Positions 2,177 to 7,811 of a DNA stretch of 22,564 nucleotides are shown piece by piece. The stretch comes from a virus, in IMG/VR virus record IMGVR_UViG_3300046367_000201, positions 1 to 22,564 of that record. One strand, written 5' to 3'. The notes beneath the pieces were generated by a model. It was given only the letters and a program-made list of their open reading frames with translations. It searched no databases and had not been told where the DNA came from. A program made the position numbers and the translations under genes. Positions within the stretch are counted from its first letter, which is position 1. Every line of letters starts with the position of its first letter.

Positions 2177-2222
2177 TTCTTTTCTATGGTAAAATTAACA
2201 TATCATAACAACTATACAACCT

Positions 2223-2735
2223 ATGAAAATTTTAACAGACTTTGGCAGACCATATACCATAGGTTCTTTAACTACTCCTCTTGCGGTAAAATACAATTGG
2301 GTGTTTAATGGTCCTGCATGCGACTTCATGTTGCAGCAAATTACGTATCTAGAAGAAACTACTGGCCCCGCGATTAAGCTGCAAATTAATGGAACCGATT
2401 TATGGGTTCCTTCATCATGGAACATTCTTGTTACCGATAGGGAAACTTATCAACTAGACACAGTCCCAGTAAAATCATGCTCAGGCGTAAAACATATTGC
2501 ATTTGGTTTTTCACCTGATGAAATGAAATTAAGAACGCTGGACATCAACGTGATTGATTTTGCAGATGAAATGTCAATTGTCCACCCGATGGTTTCTAAA
2601 GGAACTGCGCTCGTGAGTCCGGTTGGTCAGGCAGCAAAGAATATTAATCAGCAAATTGAAACTTGCGTAGCTATTGGCCCGTTTGATTTGGTAAAACACC
2701 TAGCAACAAAAGTAGTTGGAGATATTTTCTCGTAA
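2223..2735 (+). CDS. Conserved-looking phage protein of unknown function
   Basis: 170 residues with no membrane segment or signal peptide. It looks mainly beta, with a central stretch LWVPSSWNILVTDRETYQLD (60-79) and a C-terminal stretch VAIGPFDLVKH near 149-159. The wording around 'DRETYQLDTVPVKSC' and 'HP.VSKG' feels like a conserved phage family, but I cannot name it. It sits 46 bases after uvsW and just upstream of a late promoter, so it probably belongs to the recombination block rather than to the lysin. The ATG at 2223 has only a weak ribosome site. No function is assigned. Confidence 0.8.
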   Translation: MKILTDFGRPYTIGSLTTPLAVKYNWVFNGPACDFMLQQITYLEETTGPAIKLQINGTDLWVPSSWNILVTDRETYQLDTVPVKSCSGVKHIAFGFSPDEMKLRTLDINVIDFADEMSIVHPMVSKGTALVSPVGQAAKNINQQIETCVAIGPFDLVKHLATKVVGDIFS

Positions 2736-2748
2736 GGCAAAAACAAGT

Positions 2749-2756
2749 TATAAATA
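2749..2756 (+). promoter_or_regulatory. T4-type late promoter (TATAAATA)
   Basis: An exact TATAAATA octamer lies 32 bases before the endolysin ATG, in the gap after the preceding stop. In T4 this box is read by gp55-directed RNA polymerase with gp33 and the sliding clamp. Between box and ATG is a strong AAGGAGA ribosome site. The position fits late expression of a lysis gene. Confidence 0.8.
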
Positions 2757-2780
2757 GTTTTACTATCAAGGAGAACTATT

Positions 2781-3356
2781 ATGACAACAGACTTTTTTGC
2801 AGCTGCGTTTCATCATGCGATGAAATATGAAGTAGGAAATTTTTGGAATCCAAATGACCCTGATGTGATTGCAGGTCTATTTGAAACCAGGGACCAACGC
2901 AGAAAAGTCGGTTATGTTAATATACCCCAAGATAGAGGCGGAGAAACGAAATACGGTATTGCCCAAAAAGCAAATACTGAAGTAAACATTCGTGGATTGA
3001 CACTTGCACAGGCAATGGAAATCTACCGCCGAAAATATTGGATCGCCGGTTCTTGTCAGTTGTTGTCATACCCGTTGGCGATAATCCATTTTGATGGATG
3101 CGTTAATCACGGAGTCGGTCGAGCAAATAGATTTCTACAGCGAGCTGTCGGTGCTATTGAAGATGGCGCAATCGGTCCACAAACCTTAAGCGCAATAAAT
3201 TCTGCAAATCAAGGCGCTGTAATCCAGTCGCTGTCAAATACTCGAACGAATTTCTATCAACAAATAGCCAATCGAGATGCATCTCAGAAAATGTTTTTAA
3301 CCGGCTGGATGCGCCGTATCAATGAAGTCACCGCTTACTCGCTAAGTAAACTTTAA
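2781..3356 (+). CDS. Endolysin, glycoside hydrolase 108-type N-acetylmuramidase with C-terminal peptidoglycan-binding domain
   Basis: 191 residues. The GH108 hallmarks are a Glu in KYEVG (Glu17, probable catalytic acid), the GGETKYGI motif (53-60), the helix IYRRKYWIAG (81-90) and the FDGCVNHG motif (104-111). Residues 116-139 (NRFLQRAVGAIEDGAIGPQT) match a peptidoglycan-binding type 3 domain. The protein should cleave cell-wall glycan to release progeny. There is no signal peptide or membrane anchor, so it would need a holin, and none is visible here. Between Glu17 and GGETKYGI there are about 35 residues, more than the roughly 10-15 usual in the family as I recall it; the extra part holds FETRDQRRK. 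The start is fixed by AAGGAGA and the late promoter. Confidence 0.88.
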   Translation: MTTDFFAAAFHHAMKYEVGNFWNPNDPDVIAGLFETRDQRRKVGYVNIPQDRGGETKYGIAQKANTEVNIRGLTLAQAMEIYRRKYWIAGSCQLLSYPLAIIHFDGCVNHGVGRANRFLQRAVGAIEDGAIGPQTLSAINSANQGAVIQSLSNTRTNFYQQIANRDASQKMFLTGWMRRINEVTAYSLSKL

Positions 3357-3382
3357 AACCAACCCACAATTTAAAATAAAAC

Positions 3383-3401
3383 TGGCCGAAACCTTCGGCC
3401 A
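3383..3401 (+). other. Stem-loop between endolysin and nrdA
   Basis: TGGCCGAA and TTCGGCCA form a perfect 8-bp stem around a 3-base loop (ACC), 27 bases after the endolysin stop. No T-run follows, so it is not a canonical intrinsic terminator. It could be a transcript 3' end, a stabilising hairpin or a processing site separating the late lysin transcript from nrdA. Confidence 0.6.
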
Positions 3402-3433
3402 TGGCCCGATTCATCTTTGGAGAAAAACCGTAA

Positions 3434-6181
3434 ATGTCAAAAGAAATTTATGTCACTAAGCGCAACGGGAAAAAAGAACCGTTTCAACTACAGAAATGGC
3501 AAGCGCAAATTGCTAAAGTATGTGAGGGAGTAGCAGACGTTTCGCCGTCAATGATTGAAATAGCTTCTAGCCCGCATTTTTATAGTGGTATGACTACAGT
3601 TGAACTCGATCAAATTGCTCTTCGCGCTATGGTCGGCTTAATTGATGAAGAGTCAAATCCGCTTGGCAATGTTAATTACCAATATGTTGCTGGTAAACAA
3701 CGTGTCAGCATGCTTCGAAAGGATGTTTACGGGGATTATAATCCCCCGCACCTTTTTGAAACCGTCAAAAAGAATATTGAACTTGGCCTATATACACCTG
3801 ATTTAATGAAGTGGTATAGCTCCGAAGATTGGGATTATCTTAATAAGCAGTTAGATCATGGTAAAGACGAACTAATGACCTACGCTGCAGTTGAGCAACT
3901 CGTAGATAAGTATCTAGTTCGCAATCGTGCTACTGGAAATATTGTCGAATCTCCACAAATTCGCTACATGATTGCTGCAGCAACTGCATTCCATTCAGAA
4001 GAAAAAGATCGTTTGAAATGGGTAAAGGATTTCTATCACGCAGCTTCAGATGGAATTTTTACACTTGCGACTCCAGTGCTTGCTGGGCTTGGGACAAAGA
4101 CTAAACAATTTAGTTCTTGCGTTCTTTTGCGAACTGATGATACGCTGAAATCTATTTTTGCAACCGGACAAATTATGGCAGACTACGCCTCAAAGCGCGC
4201 TGGTATCGGTTTAGAAATTGGACGTATGCGTCCACTTGGGTCTTCTATTAGAGGCGGCGAAGTAATGCATACTGGCATTTTGCCATTCCTTAAGAAATGG
4301 TATGGCGATTTGCGGTCTTGTTGTGTCACCCCAGATACGTGGGTCGAAGTTGATAGCGGGCGCATTCAAATTAAAGACCTTCAAATCGGAATGAAGATTA
4401 AAACCCTTGATTCAAATAAGCAAATTGTTTATAAGACAGTTAGTGATAAGTTCGATACGCAAGTAGCAAAACAAAGTCAGATACAGTTAACTTTTGAAAA
4501 TGGTTCCATTATCAACTGTTCAACCAATCACCCGATCATGATTTGGAATAACGGCAAAATAGAACAGCGGTTGCCAGAACAACTTACTGAAAGTGATCGT
4601 ATTCTAACTGAAGATGGGTTTACCAGGTTGTTGACAATTGATGTTGGACAGGATAACCCCGAAAATTATATCGACATTACGGTAGAAGATACGCATACTT
4701 TCTTTGCTTCTGCTAGCAATGACGGACCAATGGTTTTAACTCATAATTCCCAAGGTGGCATCAGAAACGCGTCAGCAACAATAAACATGCCAATTTGGCA
4801 TTATCAATTTGACGATTACATCGTGCTAAAAAATAATAAAGGCACCGAAGAAAACCGCATTCGCCAGCTGGATTACTGCGTAGTATTGAATTCATTCTTT
4901 TGGCGCAGGTTTAAAGAGCAAAAGAATATCACGTTCTTTGATCCAAATCAAGTGCCAGATCTGTATGAAGCTTTTTATGCCGACTCTGCAAAATTTGAAA
5001 AAATGTATGAAGAATACGAACAGCGCAAAGATATTTCCAAAAAAGTAGAGTCTGCTGAAGTGGTGTTTAAAGAATGGTTAATCGCTGAGCGTATGGAAAC
5101 AGGTCGCATCTATATTTTAAACATCGATAACGTTTCTAATCAAGGCCCATTTGATACGAATGTACATCCCATTTATCAAACCAATCTTTGTTGTGAAGTG
5201 ATGTTGAGTACTAAATCTTTTCAAACCATAGATGACCCAGATGGGAGAATTGCGTTATGCACCTTGGGCTCAAACAACTGGGGAACATTCCGCCACCCAG
5301 AAGATATGCGCAGGCCCCTGCGTCTACTTCATAGGTTCCTACATAACATTCTTCAATACCAAGACTTTCTGTCTATTCATTCGTTCATGCATAATAAAGA
5401 GTTTGAGCCGCTTGGCGTTGGCGTCACCAATCTCGCTTATTGGCATGCAAAACGAAAACTTAAATATGGCGATCCTGAAGCTTTGTCAGAAGTTAAGCGA
5501 TGGATGGAACACCAAGCTTTCTATCTGACGGAAATGAATGTGGACCTTGCCAAAGAAAAAGGCAAATGTTTGGAATCAGATAATACTTGGTATGGGAGAG
5601 GTGTTTTCCCATGGGAGCGAAGAGCTGAAGGTGTAAATGAATTGGCAGATTTTACTCCCTCAGAAGACTTAGATTGGGAAGGTCTTCGCGAAAAAATGAA
5701 GACTTACGGCGTTCGCAATGCAACCACTGGTGCAATTGCTCCTGTTGAAAGTTCTAGCGTCTGTATCAATTCGACCAACGGCATCAATTTGGTTAAAGAG
5801 ATGATTGTCACAAAACGTTCAAAAGGCGGTGACATCATCCAAGTGGTCCCAGAATACAAGCGGCTGAAGAATCATTATCAGCTATTATGGGCGCAGAAAG
5901 ATTGCCTGGGCTATCTCAAAACGTCTGCAGTATTGCAGGTTTATATAGATCAAGGAATTTCTACAGATATGCCGTTTACCCCAAGGAATTATCCGAACGG
6001 GAAAATTGACATCAATGACGTTATTAAAGCACACATGCTATTTCATAAATGGGGAGGAAAATCTCTCTATTACGCCATTATTGAAAAACAGGCGGCCATG
6101 GAATCAGTAAAAGATGAAGTAAAAAGTTTGCCTGTTCAAGAAGATGATGGTGAACAATATTGCGAGTCTTGCGTATTGTGA
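3434..6181 (+). CDS. nrdA: Class Ia ribonucleotide reductase large subunit with in-frame mini-intein
   Basis: 915 residues, of which about 773 are NrdA (E. coli 761). It reduces ribonucleotides to deoxyribonucleotides with NrdB. It aligns well with E. coli NrdA as I recall it: N-terminal ATP-cone (about 4-95); FSSCV with Cys229 (E. coli Cys225); NLCCE with Asn584, Cys586 and Glu588 (Asn437, Cys439, Glu441); ALCTL with Cys609 (Cys462); SLYY with Tyr879-Tyr880 (the radical-transfer pair); and C-terminal Cys910 and Cys913, re-reduced by a glutaredoxin or thioredoxin. All catalytic residues are present. An intein spans residues 297-438, so the active enzyme needs protein splicing. The start follows GGAG (3419-3422). 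nrdB and a glutaredoxin gene follow, forming a dNTP-synthesis cluster. Confidence 0.97.
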   Translation: MSKEIYVTKRNGKKEPFQLQKWQAQIAKVCEGVADVSPSMIEIASSPHFYSGMTTVELDQIALRAMVGLIDEESNPLGNVNYQYVAGKQRVSMLRKDVYGDYNPPHLFETVKKNIELGLYTPDLMKWYSSEDWDYLNKQLDHGKDELMTYAAVEQLVDKYLVRNRATGNIVESPQIRYMIAAATAFHSEEKDRLKWVKDFYHAASDGIFTLATPVLAGLGTKTKQFSSCVLLRTDDTLKSIFATGQIMADYASKRAGIGLEIGRMRPLGSSIRGGEVMHTGILPFLKKWYGDLRSCCVTPDTWVEVDSGRIQIKDLQIGMKIKTLDSNKQIVYKTVSDKFDTQVAKQSQIQLTFENGSIINCSTNHPIMIWNNGKIEQRLPEQLTESDRILTEDGFTRLLTIDVGQDNPENYIDITVEDTHTFFASASNDGPMVLTHNSQGGIRNASATINMPIWHYQFDDYIVLKNNKGTEENRIRQLDYCVVLNSFFWRRFKEQKNITFFDPNQVPDLYEAFYADSAKFEKMYEEYEQRKDISKKVESAEVVFKEWLIAERMETGRIYILNIDNVSNQGPFDTNVHPIYQTNLCCEVMLSTKSFQTIDDPDGRIALCTLGSNNWGTFRHPEDMRRPLRLLHRFLHNILQYQDFLSIHSFMHNKEFEPLGVGVTNLAYWHAKRKLKYGDPEALSEVKRWMEHQAFYLTEMNVDLAKEKGKCLESDNTWYGRGVFPWERRAEGVNELADFTPSEDLDWEGLREKMKTYGVRNATTGAIAPVESSSVCINSTNGINLVKEMIVTKRSKGGDIIQVVPEYKRLKNHYQLLWAQKDCLGYLKTSAVLQVYIDQGISTDMPFTPRNYPNGKIDINDVIKAHMLFHKWGGKSLYYAIIEKQAAMESVKDEVKSLPVQEDDGEQYCESCVL
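4322..4747 (+). mobile_element. Mini-intein (142 residues) inside NrdA
   Basis: The reading frame departs from NrdA homology at Cys297 and resumes at Ser439, joining RSC to SQGGIRNASAT. Splicing blocks are visible: block A begins CVTPDTWVEV (297-306); block B is GSIINCSTNHPIM (357-369), with His366 and a Ser (363) where Thr is usual; block F is YIDITVEDTHTFF (412-424); block G is MVLTHN (433-438), with penultimate His437, terminal Asn438 and +1 Ser439. The length leaves no room for a LAGLIDADG or HNH homing endonuclease, so it is a mini-intein. Every residue needed for the standard class 1 mechanism is present, so splicing is expected. The insertion follows Cys296, the equivalent of E. coli Cys292 in specificity loop 2. 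Confidence 0.95.
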
Positions 6182-6299: not shown

Positions 6300-7385
6300 A
6301 TGACATTAGACTTTTCAAAATCGACAAATTACGGCCAGCGAAAAATGTTTCTAGATCCGGCGGGGTCAGTAACTATTCAACGCTATGATGATTATGCATA
6401 TCCGAAACTTGCGCAGTTTACTAAAACGCAGCGGGGCAATTTTTGGATTCCCGATGAAGTTTCTTTGACTAAAGATAAGATTGATTTCTCAAAAGCAAAT
6501 GATGCAACCAAGTTTATTTTTACGTCAAATTTGCTTCGGCAAACTGCGCTGGATTCGATTCAGGGTCGAGCACCAGTTCAGATTTTTACTCCAGTTTGTT
6601 CTGTCCCCGAAGCAGAAGCTTGGGTGCAATGGTGGTCAGCATTTGAACAGATTCACAGCGAGTCGTATTCACATATCATTCGTAACATCTATCAGATGCC
6701 AAGTGACCAATTTAATCAGATTCATGATACATCAGAAATCGTGAACATGTTAAGTGGCATTGACAAATACTATACCGATCTTCACCACTTAAACAGTTTG
6801 GTTCAAACAGGTGTTGAAGTCAGCGAAGCTAAAATGGTAAAAGCTGTCTATATGGCGCTGATTGCTTCCTACGGGCTGGAGGCGATTCGTTTCATGGTGT
6901 CTTTCTGTACCTCATTAGGTATGGTAGAAAATCGAATCTTCGTCGGCAATGGTAATATTATTAGTTTGATTTTGGCCGATGAGTTGCTGCATACAGATGC
7001 GACAGCTTGGATGATCAATCAAAACGTGAAAGACGACTATCGCTTCAAGGAAATTGCGTCTGAATGTGCTAAAGAGGCAAAGGACATGCTCGAGAGCGTT
7101 GTTGCTGAAGAAAAAGCTTGGGCGCATTATCAGTTTCAAAAAGGCACAGTTCTCGGGATGAATGAAAAGATTATGTGCAGCCAAGTTGACTACACTGCTC
7201 AGGAACGTTTTAAAGCCGTTGGCGTCAAGTATGATGCGGGCATTAAAAGCGCTCCTCTTCCCTGGATGAGCAAGCATTTGAATACAAATAAAATTCAAAC
7301 GGCTTTACAAGAAAATGAAAGTACAAGCTACGTACTTTCATCGATGAGCAACAAAATCGATTATGAATCTCTTCCAAGCATCTAA
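6300..7385 (+). CDS. nrdB: Class Ia ribonucleotide reductase small (radical) subunit
   Basis: 361 residues (E. coli NrdB 375). It houses the diiron-tyrosyl radical that starts catalysis in NrdA. The ligand set is intact: Asp85 in LDSIQGR, Glu116 and His119 in FEQIHSESYSH, radical Tyr123, Glu194 in YGLEAIRF, and Glu228 and His231 in ADELLH; a further Glu expected in the family is Glu194 or Glu228 by alignment. The C-terminal tail (NKIDYESLPSI) would dock on NrdA. The ribosome site is AAGGA, 11 bases upstream. Unlike T4 nrdB, which carries a group I intron, this copy is uninterrupted. The same frame continues after the stop into the small broken frame at 7404-7535. Confidence 0.96.
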   Translation: MTLDFSKSTNYGQRKMFLDPAGSVTIQRYDDYAYPKLAQFTKTQRGNFWIPDEVSLTKDKIDFSKANDATKFIFTSNLLRQTALDSIQGRAPVQIFTPVCSVPEAEAWVQWWSAFEQIHSESYSHIIRNIYQMPSDQFNQIHDTSEIVNMLSGIDKYYTDLHHLNSLVQTGVEVSEAKMVKAVYMALIASYGLEAIRFMVSFCTSLGMVENRIFVGNGNIISLILADELLHTDATAWMINQNVKDDYRFKEIASECAKEAKDMLESVVAEEKAWAHYQFQKGTVLGMNEKIMCSQVDYTAQERFKAVGVKYDAGIKSAPLPWMSKHLNTNKIQTALQENESTSYVLSSMSNKIDYESLPSI

Positions 7386-7565: not shown

Positions 7566-7811
7566 TTGTATCAAATCTATTCAAAACCTAATTGCACTTA
7601 TTGTGACCAAGCTAAACTGCTACTCGGGGCAAATAACCTACAGTTCGAAGAACTTATAATTGATGTAGGACAGGATAAAGACCCAACTAAAACTTATGTT
7701 CAGGTCAGTCAACTTAAGGAACTGGTCCCAAATGCAAAATCAGTTCCACAGATCTTTAAAGATGGTATCTTAATTGGCGGGTTTACCGAGCTAAAAGAGT
7801 CATTACGATAA
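7566..7811 (+). CDS. nrdC: Glutaredoxin (NrdC-like electron donor for ribonucleotide reductase)
   Basis: 81 residues with the glutaredoxin fold signature: redox motif CTYC (Cys10, Cys13), SVPQIF with the conserved cis-Pro61, and a GG turn (71-72) before the last helix. It would reduce the C-terminal cysteines of NrdA after each turnover. The start is TTG: an AAGGAGA site lies just upstream, there is no in-frame ATG that keeps the active site, and the protein begins directly with the first beta strand (YQIYSK). It is placed after nrdA and nrdB and closed by an intrinsic terminator, consistent with one dNTP-synthesis transcription unit. T4 NrdC is a functional analogue; orthology is inferred. 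Confidence 0.92.
   Translation: MYQIYSKPNCTYCDQAKLLLGANNLQFEELIIDVGQDKDPTKTYVQVSQLKELVPNAKSVPQIFKDGILIGGFTELKESLR

What the first reader, a model, noticed from the sequence alone, without database searches (positions are those of the whole stretch)
4322..4747. Endonuclease-free mini-intein placed in the allosteric specificity loop of NrdA
The intein interrupts NrdA between Cys296 and Ser439 (E. coli Cys292/Ser293), the start of loop 2, which reads the bound effector and selects the substrate. It is only 142 residues, with complete splicing blocks A, B, F and G, and a Ser instead of Thr in the block B TxxH motif. Unspliced NrdA should be inactive, so splicing rate could set when dNTP synthesis starts. 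T4-type nrd genes are known targets of mobile elements (the T4 nrdB intron, the Aeh1 nrdA split); an endonuclease-less intein at this exact site would be a settled relic or a post-translational switch.
Basis: partly seen in the sequence, partly recalled or inferred. Interest (0 to 1): 0.7.

Follow-up and report, generated by a model that had tools for sequence, protein, structure and literature searches.

The report
Contiguous mini-intein in phage ribonucleotide reductase
A phage enzyme that makes DNA building blocks carries a small self-removing protein insert; it is an ordinary-looking member of an unusual family in which most close relatives have the insert cut in two by a homing-endonuclease gene, and some relatives show that gene being deleted and the two halves rejoined.

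Summary
Window 4322-4747 encodes a 142-residue class 1 mini-intein in a phage NrdA, between residues equivalent to E. coli Cys292 and Ser293, at the start of allosteric loop 2. It has a confident HINT-fold model, intact blocks A/B/F/G and no endonuclease. The exact uninterrupted site (LRSC|SQGGIRNAS) occurs in 76 of the 80 nearest NrdA loci.

The interpretation needs changing. The same-site intein is widespread in phages. Among 42 distinct inteins, 29 are naturally split after only 12-25 residues, usually with a stand-alone endonuclease gene (GIY-YIG-like, HNH or DUF7487-type) between the halves. Thirteen, including the window's, are contiguous. Relatives preserve intermediates: near-identical alleles with and without the endonuclease, split inteins keeping only its 3' end, and contiguous inteins retaining the C-half's start codon. 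The cis/split state changes at least 11 times on the tree. Intein and extein phylogenies disagree, so the intein moves horizontally; a sister phage with 92% identical NrdA carries only a 49% identical intein at the same site.

Most likely the window's intein splices constitutively and is an endonuclease-free allele of a mobile element. Whether it was re-fused or never split is unresolved. Nothing supports a regulatory switch.

The parts
3434..4321 (+). NrdA N-extein (residues 1-296, ends GDLRSC; Cys296 = E. coli Cys292)
4322..4747 (+). contiguous class 1 mini-intein, 142 aa (residues 297-438)
   Evidence: exact empty site in relatives
4322..4351 (+). block A, CVTPDTWVEV; equals the short N-fragment (IntN) of split relatives
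4352..4363 (+). linker DSGR, at the point where split relatives have a stop codon and usually an endonuclease gene
4364..4747 (+). IQIKDL...VLTHN; equals the C-fragment (IntC) of split relatives
4502..4540 (+). block B GSIINCSTNHPIM; Ser67 in the Thr position, His70 catalytic position
   Evidence: Ser and His invariant in the family
4664..4711 (+). block F NYIDITVEDTHTFFAS (Asp118, His125)
4730..4750 (+). block G MVLTHN plus +1 Ser439
4748..6181 (+). NrdA C-extein with stop codon; equivalents of catalytic Cys439, Glu441, Cys462, Tyr730/731 and the C-terminal Cys pair are present
6300..7385 (+). nrdB (class Ia small subunit), context
7566..7811 (+). glutaredoxin/thioredoxin-like, context

Best explanation
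This is a functional class 1 cis-splicing mini-intein that excises itself soon after translation: Cys1 acyl shift, transesterification to Ser439, Asn142 cyclisation. It restores an intact loop 2 (RSC-SQGG) and an active class Ia NrdA. It is the endonuclease-free, contiguous allele of a phage-borne intein family that homes into this conserved NrdA site. In most relatives the allele is fractured: a 12-25-residue IntN fused to N-NrdA, then a stand-alone homing endonuclease gene, then IntC fused to C-NrdA, reassembling by trans-splicing. Deletion of the endonuclease gene, sometimes followed by re-fusion of the halves, produces contiguous alleles. Shown by sequence: the intein's identity, its site, the split, endonuclease-deleted and fused forms in relatives, and horizontal exchange in the family. 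Inferred: splicing itself, trans-splicing of relatives, homing by the endonucleases, and absence of regulation. Not settled: whether the window's own copy was once split.
For: HINT profile and fold matches. Exact empty sites. NrdA catalytic residues kept. Split relatives with an ORF between IntN and IntC. The ORFs match phage homing endonuclease families, or for the commonest type align first to I-TevI and UvrC GIY-YIG domains at modest Z 5.7-5.3. L133 is 100% and 97.7% identical to L132 on the two sides of a clean 985-base deletion of the endonuclease. Endonuclease 3' remnants remain in L014, L129, L152 and L040. The IntC start Met is retained in contiguous L011, L077 and L128. Cis/split needs 11 changes on the tree. 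L128 and L143 inteins are sisters (98/87; 85.5% identity) although their exteins are only 71% identical and group elsewhere. Purifying selection on inteins in both states: dN/dS 0.05-0.11 in five of six pairs.
Against: No splicing experiment exists. Selection could not be tested on the window's own copy, because its only close match (L010) is identical and all others are 65% identical or less. The window's DSGR linker keeps no endonuclease remnant or internal Met, so a split past is not shown for it. Some metagenomic deletions could be assembly errors, though several independent loci show them.
Confidence: 0.85

Rival explanations
1. The window's intein is a re-fused former split intein: an ancestor carried IntN, an endonuclease gene and IntC, the endonuclease was lost and the halves fused.
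For: Fusion is documented in relatives: L077, L011 and L128 keep the IntC start Met, and L012 keeps the acidic IntN tail. The nearest intein to the window's is a split one, L126 (65%). 29 of 42 distinct family members are split.
Against: The DSGR linker has no Met or endonuclease remnant. Distant contiguous members (Thanatos, L171, L173 with SGRIQIKDL) look similar and could be primitively contiguous. The window's place in the tree is unsupported.
Confidence: 0.45
2. The window's intein is primitively contiguous and was never split; endonuclease invasion happened only in other lineages.
For: Contiguous alleles occur in distant branches (L001, L003, L173, L178). The linker is compact.
Against: The state flips too often on the tree to infer an ancestor (11 changes against a shuffled mean of 11.4).
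Confidence: 0.45
3. Conditional switch: splicing is held back, for example by a disulfide between N-extein Cys296 (-1) and Cys297 (1), and released in the reduced cell, so that splicing times dNTP synthesis.
For: Cys at -1 and 1 are adjacent in the window and most relatives. A Cys1/N-extein disulfide trap is described for the MoaA intein of Pyrococcus abyssi (PMC10663303).
Against: Cys296 is there because host Cys292 reads the allosteric effector (PMC4728125) and it is present in empty sites too. Thanatos, KARL-1 and L179 lack the pair. Vicinal disulfides are strained (general knowledge). Near relatives do without any intein.
Confidence: 0.05
4. The intein is splicing-defective and the gene makes no working NrdA.
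For: Ser replaces the usual block B Thr.
Against: That Ser is invariant in the whole family, which is under purifying selection. All other catalytic positions and NrdA active-site residues are intact.
Confidence: 0.04
5. The window and L171 inteins share vertical descent and simply diverged fast; no allele replacement occurred in this lineage.
For: The AU test does not reject window and L171 inteins as one clade (p 0.555).
Against: Exteins dN 0.055 versus intein dN 0.48, 49% intein identity at 92% extein identity, and each intein is closer to those of other phages. Other pairs in the family show clear topological conflict.
Confidence: 0.2

Closest known systems
Same-site inteins in Shewanella phages Thanatos-1/-2, Vibrio phages SUMAE/VPALA and Acinetobacter phage KARL-1 NrdA
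   Same: Homologous intein (43-45% identity) at the same NrdA loop 2 site
   Different: Thanatos and KARL-1 inteins sit one residue upstream (+1 Cys instead of +1 Ser). KARL-1 is split after 12 residues with an endonuclease-like gene between the parts. None of the viewed record annotations names an intein.
'Fractured genes' with split inteins and stand-alone endonucleases (Dassa et al. 2009; paper not held, known here through PMC3653736 and PMC10448857)
   Same: Relatives of the window have nrdA fractured by a split intein with an endonuclease gene between the halves
   Different: The window copy is contiguous. In relatives the break lies 12-25 residues from the intein N-terminus, whereas canonical split inteins break at 100-120 residues (PMC13014065). 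Whether Dassa's NrdA examples break at this point could not be checked.
Atypically split inteins VidaL and PolB16 OarG (IntN 16 and 15 aa, S1 split site)
   Same: Family members break at an equivalent early position; the VidaL structure matches the window model (6vgv, Z 16.8)
   Different: Window copy not split; different host gene. KARL-1 (12 aa), L039 and L043 (13 aa) would have shorter IntN than the 15 aa called shortest characterised (PMC10189870).
Aeh1 mobE-split nrdA (Friedrich et al. 2007, cited in PMC10448857)
   Same: Endonuclease insertion breaks a phage nrdA into two genes
   Different: By the summaries seen, Aeh1 NrdA works as two pieces; here an intein rejoins them
gp41-1, NpuDnaB and NrdJ-1 inteins (solved structures)
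   Same: HINT fold; about 20-26% identity over 123-129 aligned residues
   Different: Different host proteins and insertion sites

Membership tests
Class 1 intein | HINT fold | tested here: met
   AF2 pLDDT 96.4; PDB HINT matches, Z up to 19.6
Class 1 intein | Nucleophilic Cys/Ser/Thr at position 1 in a block A context | tested here: met
   CVTPDTWVEV; intein_Nterm above cut-off
Class 1 intein | Block B histidine (usually TxxH) | tested here: met
   His70 invariant; the Thr is Ser67 throughout this family
Class 1 intein | C-terminal His-Asn followed by Cys/Ser/Thr +1 | tested here: met
   THN|S; intein_Cterm above cut-off
Class 1 intein | Excision restores an uninterrupted host sequence | tested here: met
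   LRSC|SQGGIRNAS found empty in 76 of 80 relatives
Class 1 intein | Protein splicing occurs | not testable with these tools
   needs expression
Mini-intein | No homing endonuclease domain | tested here: met
   142 aa, all in the HINT domain; no endonuclease family hit
Naturally split intein / fractured gene | Intein halves on separate polypeptides with a gene between | tested here: not met
   Window ORF is open from 3434 to 6181. In relatives: 29 of 42 distinct family inteins are split, most with an ORF between
Catalogued RIR1/NrdA insertion allele (InBase) | Same insertion site as a catalogued allele | not testable with these tools
   InBase not available; same site found directly in public phage records
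Conditional (switchable) intein | Splicing rate depends on a physiological signal | not testable with these tools
   only adjacent Cys296-Cys297 as a possible basis

The most novel reading that the evidence does not exclude
Splitting of this intein is reversible. A homing endonuclease gene breaks a contiguous intein near its N-terminus, spreads with it, is then deleted, and the halves re-fuse; the window's intein is such a re-fused allele, which also protects its nrdA from being cut again because it fills the target site.
Probability: 0.35. Interest if true: 0.65.

Novelty: new variant of a known kind. Interest (0 to 1): 0.45.

Why it matters
How split inteins arise, and whether they can revert, is usually argued from isolated examples. 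Here one insertion site in phage nrdA holds empty, contiguous, split-with-endonuclease, split-with-remnant and re-fused states in close relatives, so the order of events can be tested by sequence and by splicing assays. The short N-fragments (12-25 aa) are also candidates for protein-labelling tools. For the window's own intein the regulatory-switch idea should not be carried forward without an experiment.

Tried and rejected
Relatives in bacterial and archaeal genomes: a scan of genome contigs with the IntC alignment found none. An endonuclease of the common type in the 92.8-kb contig holding an identical copy (L010): no match. Proof by tree that the window and L171 inteins are not sisters: the AU test gave p 0.555, so this was not claimed. 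Extein/intein comparisons that included C-extein for L147, L150 and L040 were discarded, because a second intein sits 8 residues downstream there; N-extein alone was used. Foldseek on the common endonuclease model found nothing significant; VIA-align put GIY-YIG domains first at Z 5.2-5.7 on a model of pLDDT 71, so the GIY-YIG label is tentative. Pfam and PHROGs had no hit for that ORF. Dassa 2009 could not be read. No paper in the library mentions Thanatos together with Shewanella and an intein.

Full report
WHAT IS THERE. The window carries a phage class Ia ribonucleotide reductase region: a UvsY-like gene (27-488), a DNA helicase (713-2176), an endolysin (2781-3356), nrdA (3434-6181), nrdB (6300-7385) and a thioredoxin-like gene (7566-7811). 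nrdA is one open frame of 915 codons. Codons 297-438 (4322-4747) do not belong to the reductase: profile searches find Hint, intein_Nterm and intein_Cterm there and reductase on both sides. The predicted structure of the 142 residues is confident (pLDDT 96.4, pTM 0.89; the other four models averaged 65-72) and matches solved inteins, a bacterial intein-like domain and Hedgehog.

THE SITE. Aligning the N-extein to E. coli K-12 NrdA puts window Cys296 on E. coli residue 292. Loop 2 is residues 292-301, and Cys292, Ser293 and Gln294 read the effector base (PMC4728125). Of the 80 nearest NrdA loci in IMG/VR, 76 have the uninterrupted sequence LRSC|SQGG; one more (L074) ends two codons past an uninterrupted site, one is contiguous-intein (L077) and two are split-intein (L079, L088). 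Splicing at the inferred junctions would therefore give the normal protein. The reductase's catalytic residues are kept.

THE SAME INTEIN ELSEWHERE. Homologues at this site are in cultured phages Thanatos-1/-2, SUMAE, VPALA and KARL-1, and a search of IMG/VR with the intein and then with an alignment found about 60 loci. None was found in bacterial or archaeal species genomes. The Ser in block B is shared by all, so it is a family trait.

MOST RELATIVES ARE SPLIT. In 29 of 42 distinct inteins the frame stops 12-25 residues into the intein, and the remainder starts as a new gene (typically MVKTKKIQIKDL) fused to the C-extein. The N-fragments are acidic, with net charge -1 to -8, while the C-fragments begin with Lys-rich sequence. 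Between the two lies, in most, a stand-alone ORF: a common 364-380-residue type whose N-terminus is GIY-YIG-like by motif and by modest structural match; an HNH type (L013); or proteins of PHROG homing-endonuclease families with DUF7487 (L027, L032, KARL-1). In the common type the 3' end of the ORF overlaps the start codon of the C-fragment gene.

STATES IN BETWEEN. L133 equals L132 (98.6% extein and 100% intein identity) except for a clean deletion of 985 bases of the endonuclease. L014, L129, L152 and L040 are still split but keep only the 3' end of an endonuclease gene. L077 (CVTPDTWVEVLKMVKTKKIQIKDL), L011 and L128 are contiguous and keep the former start codon of the C-fragment as an internal Met. 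Endonuclease loss followed by re-fusion is therefore the simplest reading in these relatives. On the intein tree cis and split need 11 changes (bootstrap range 9-12), no fewer than shuffled labels (mean 11.4).

MOBILITY. L128 and L143 inteins are sisters (98/87; 85.5% identity), while their N-exteins are 71% identical and group with L132 (91.4%) and L163 (90.7%) respectively; the L128-L132 and L143-L163 inteins are only 74.8% and 53.1% identical. The window's sister L171 is syntenic and has 92% identical NrdA but a 49% identical intein, and nucleotide matches break at the intein. Replacement of one allele is likely, but the tree does not exclude fast divergence (AU p 0.555).

HOW IT MOST LIKELY WORKS. 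By established class 1 intein chemistry the insert removes itself and NrdA becomes active; no regulation need be invoked. Purifying selection on related inteins in both states (dN/dS 0.05-0.11 in five pairs; a sixth, very close pair gave 0.39 on few changes) fits a requirement for splicing. The adjacent Cys296-Cys297 could in principle form a redox trap as in MoaA (PMC10663303), but Cys296 is a host residue present in empty sites, so this is a weak lead.

WHAT IS NOT SETTLED. Whether the window's own copy was once split: its DSGR linker has no remnant, and its nearest intein (L126, 65%) is split, but its place in the tree is unsupported. Prior art on split NrdA inteins (Dassa 2009) could not be read; it is cited as reporting intein-interrupted nrdA genes in ocean metagenomes (PMC3653736). 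The early break point and reversibility may therefore be partly known.

VERDICT. The finding is real. The window's intein on its own is a new member of a known kind; the family around it, with its apparently reversible splitting, is a new variant and carries most of the interest.

Noticed in passing
L005 (Acinetobacter phage KARL-1, NC_049441.1) 2210-5929: nrdA is a natural split intein with a 12-residue N-fragment (CLTPDTKVEILV), shorter than the 15 residues called the shortest characterised (PMC10189870); gp59 between the parts matches homing endonuclease families. The record names the parts as reductase and hypothetical protein.
   Followed up: partly
L040-L042, L079, L147, L149-L151, L153: A second intein lies about 8 residues downstream of the first, inside loop 2, so two inteins flank an eight-residue extein piece.
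   Followed up: no
L015, L024, L027, L034, L171 (C-extein about residue 150): Many relatives have another insertion at NLC|C, the Cys439 radical site; in L171 the frame is interrupted there. The window is empty at that site.
   Followed up: no
L001, L002, L005, L179, L180 versus the window and most others: The insertion point differs by one codon: KS|C...THN|CSQGG (+1 Cys) versus KSC|C...THN|SQGG (+1 Ser). The tree suggests the shift happened more than once.
   Followed up: partly
L133 versus L132: Two alleles with 100% identical IntC differ by a clean 985-base deletion of the endonuclease gene, with about 9 bases shared at the break.
   Followed up: partly
L015 2917-4011 and homologues: The commonest endonuclease-like ORF between the intein halves matches no Pfam or PHROGs family; only a modest structural match to GIY-YIG domains.
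   Followed up: partly
L008 (Acinetobacter phage nACB2): Its NrdA-like protein has an intein at the NLC|C site, not at loop 2.
   Followed up: no
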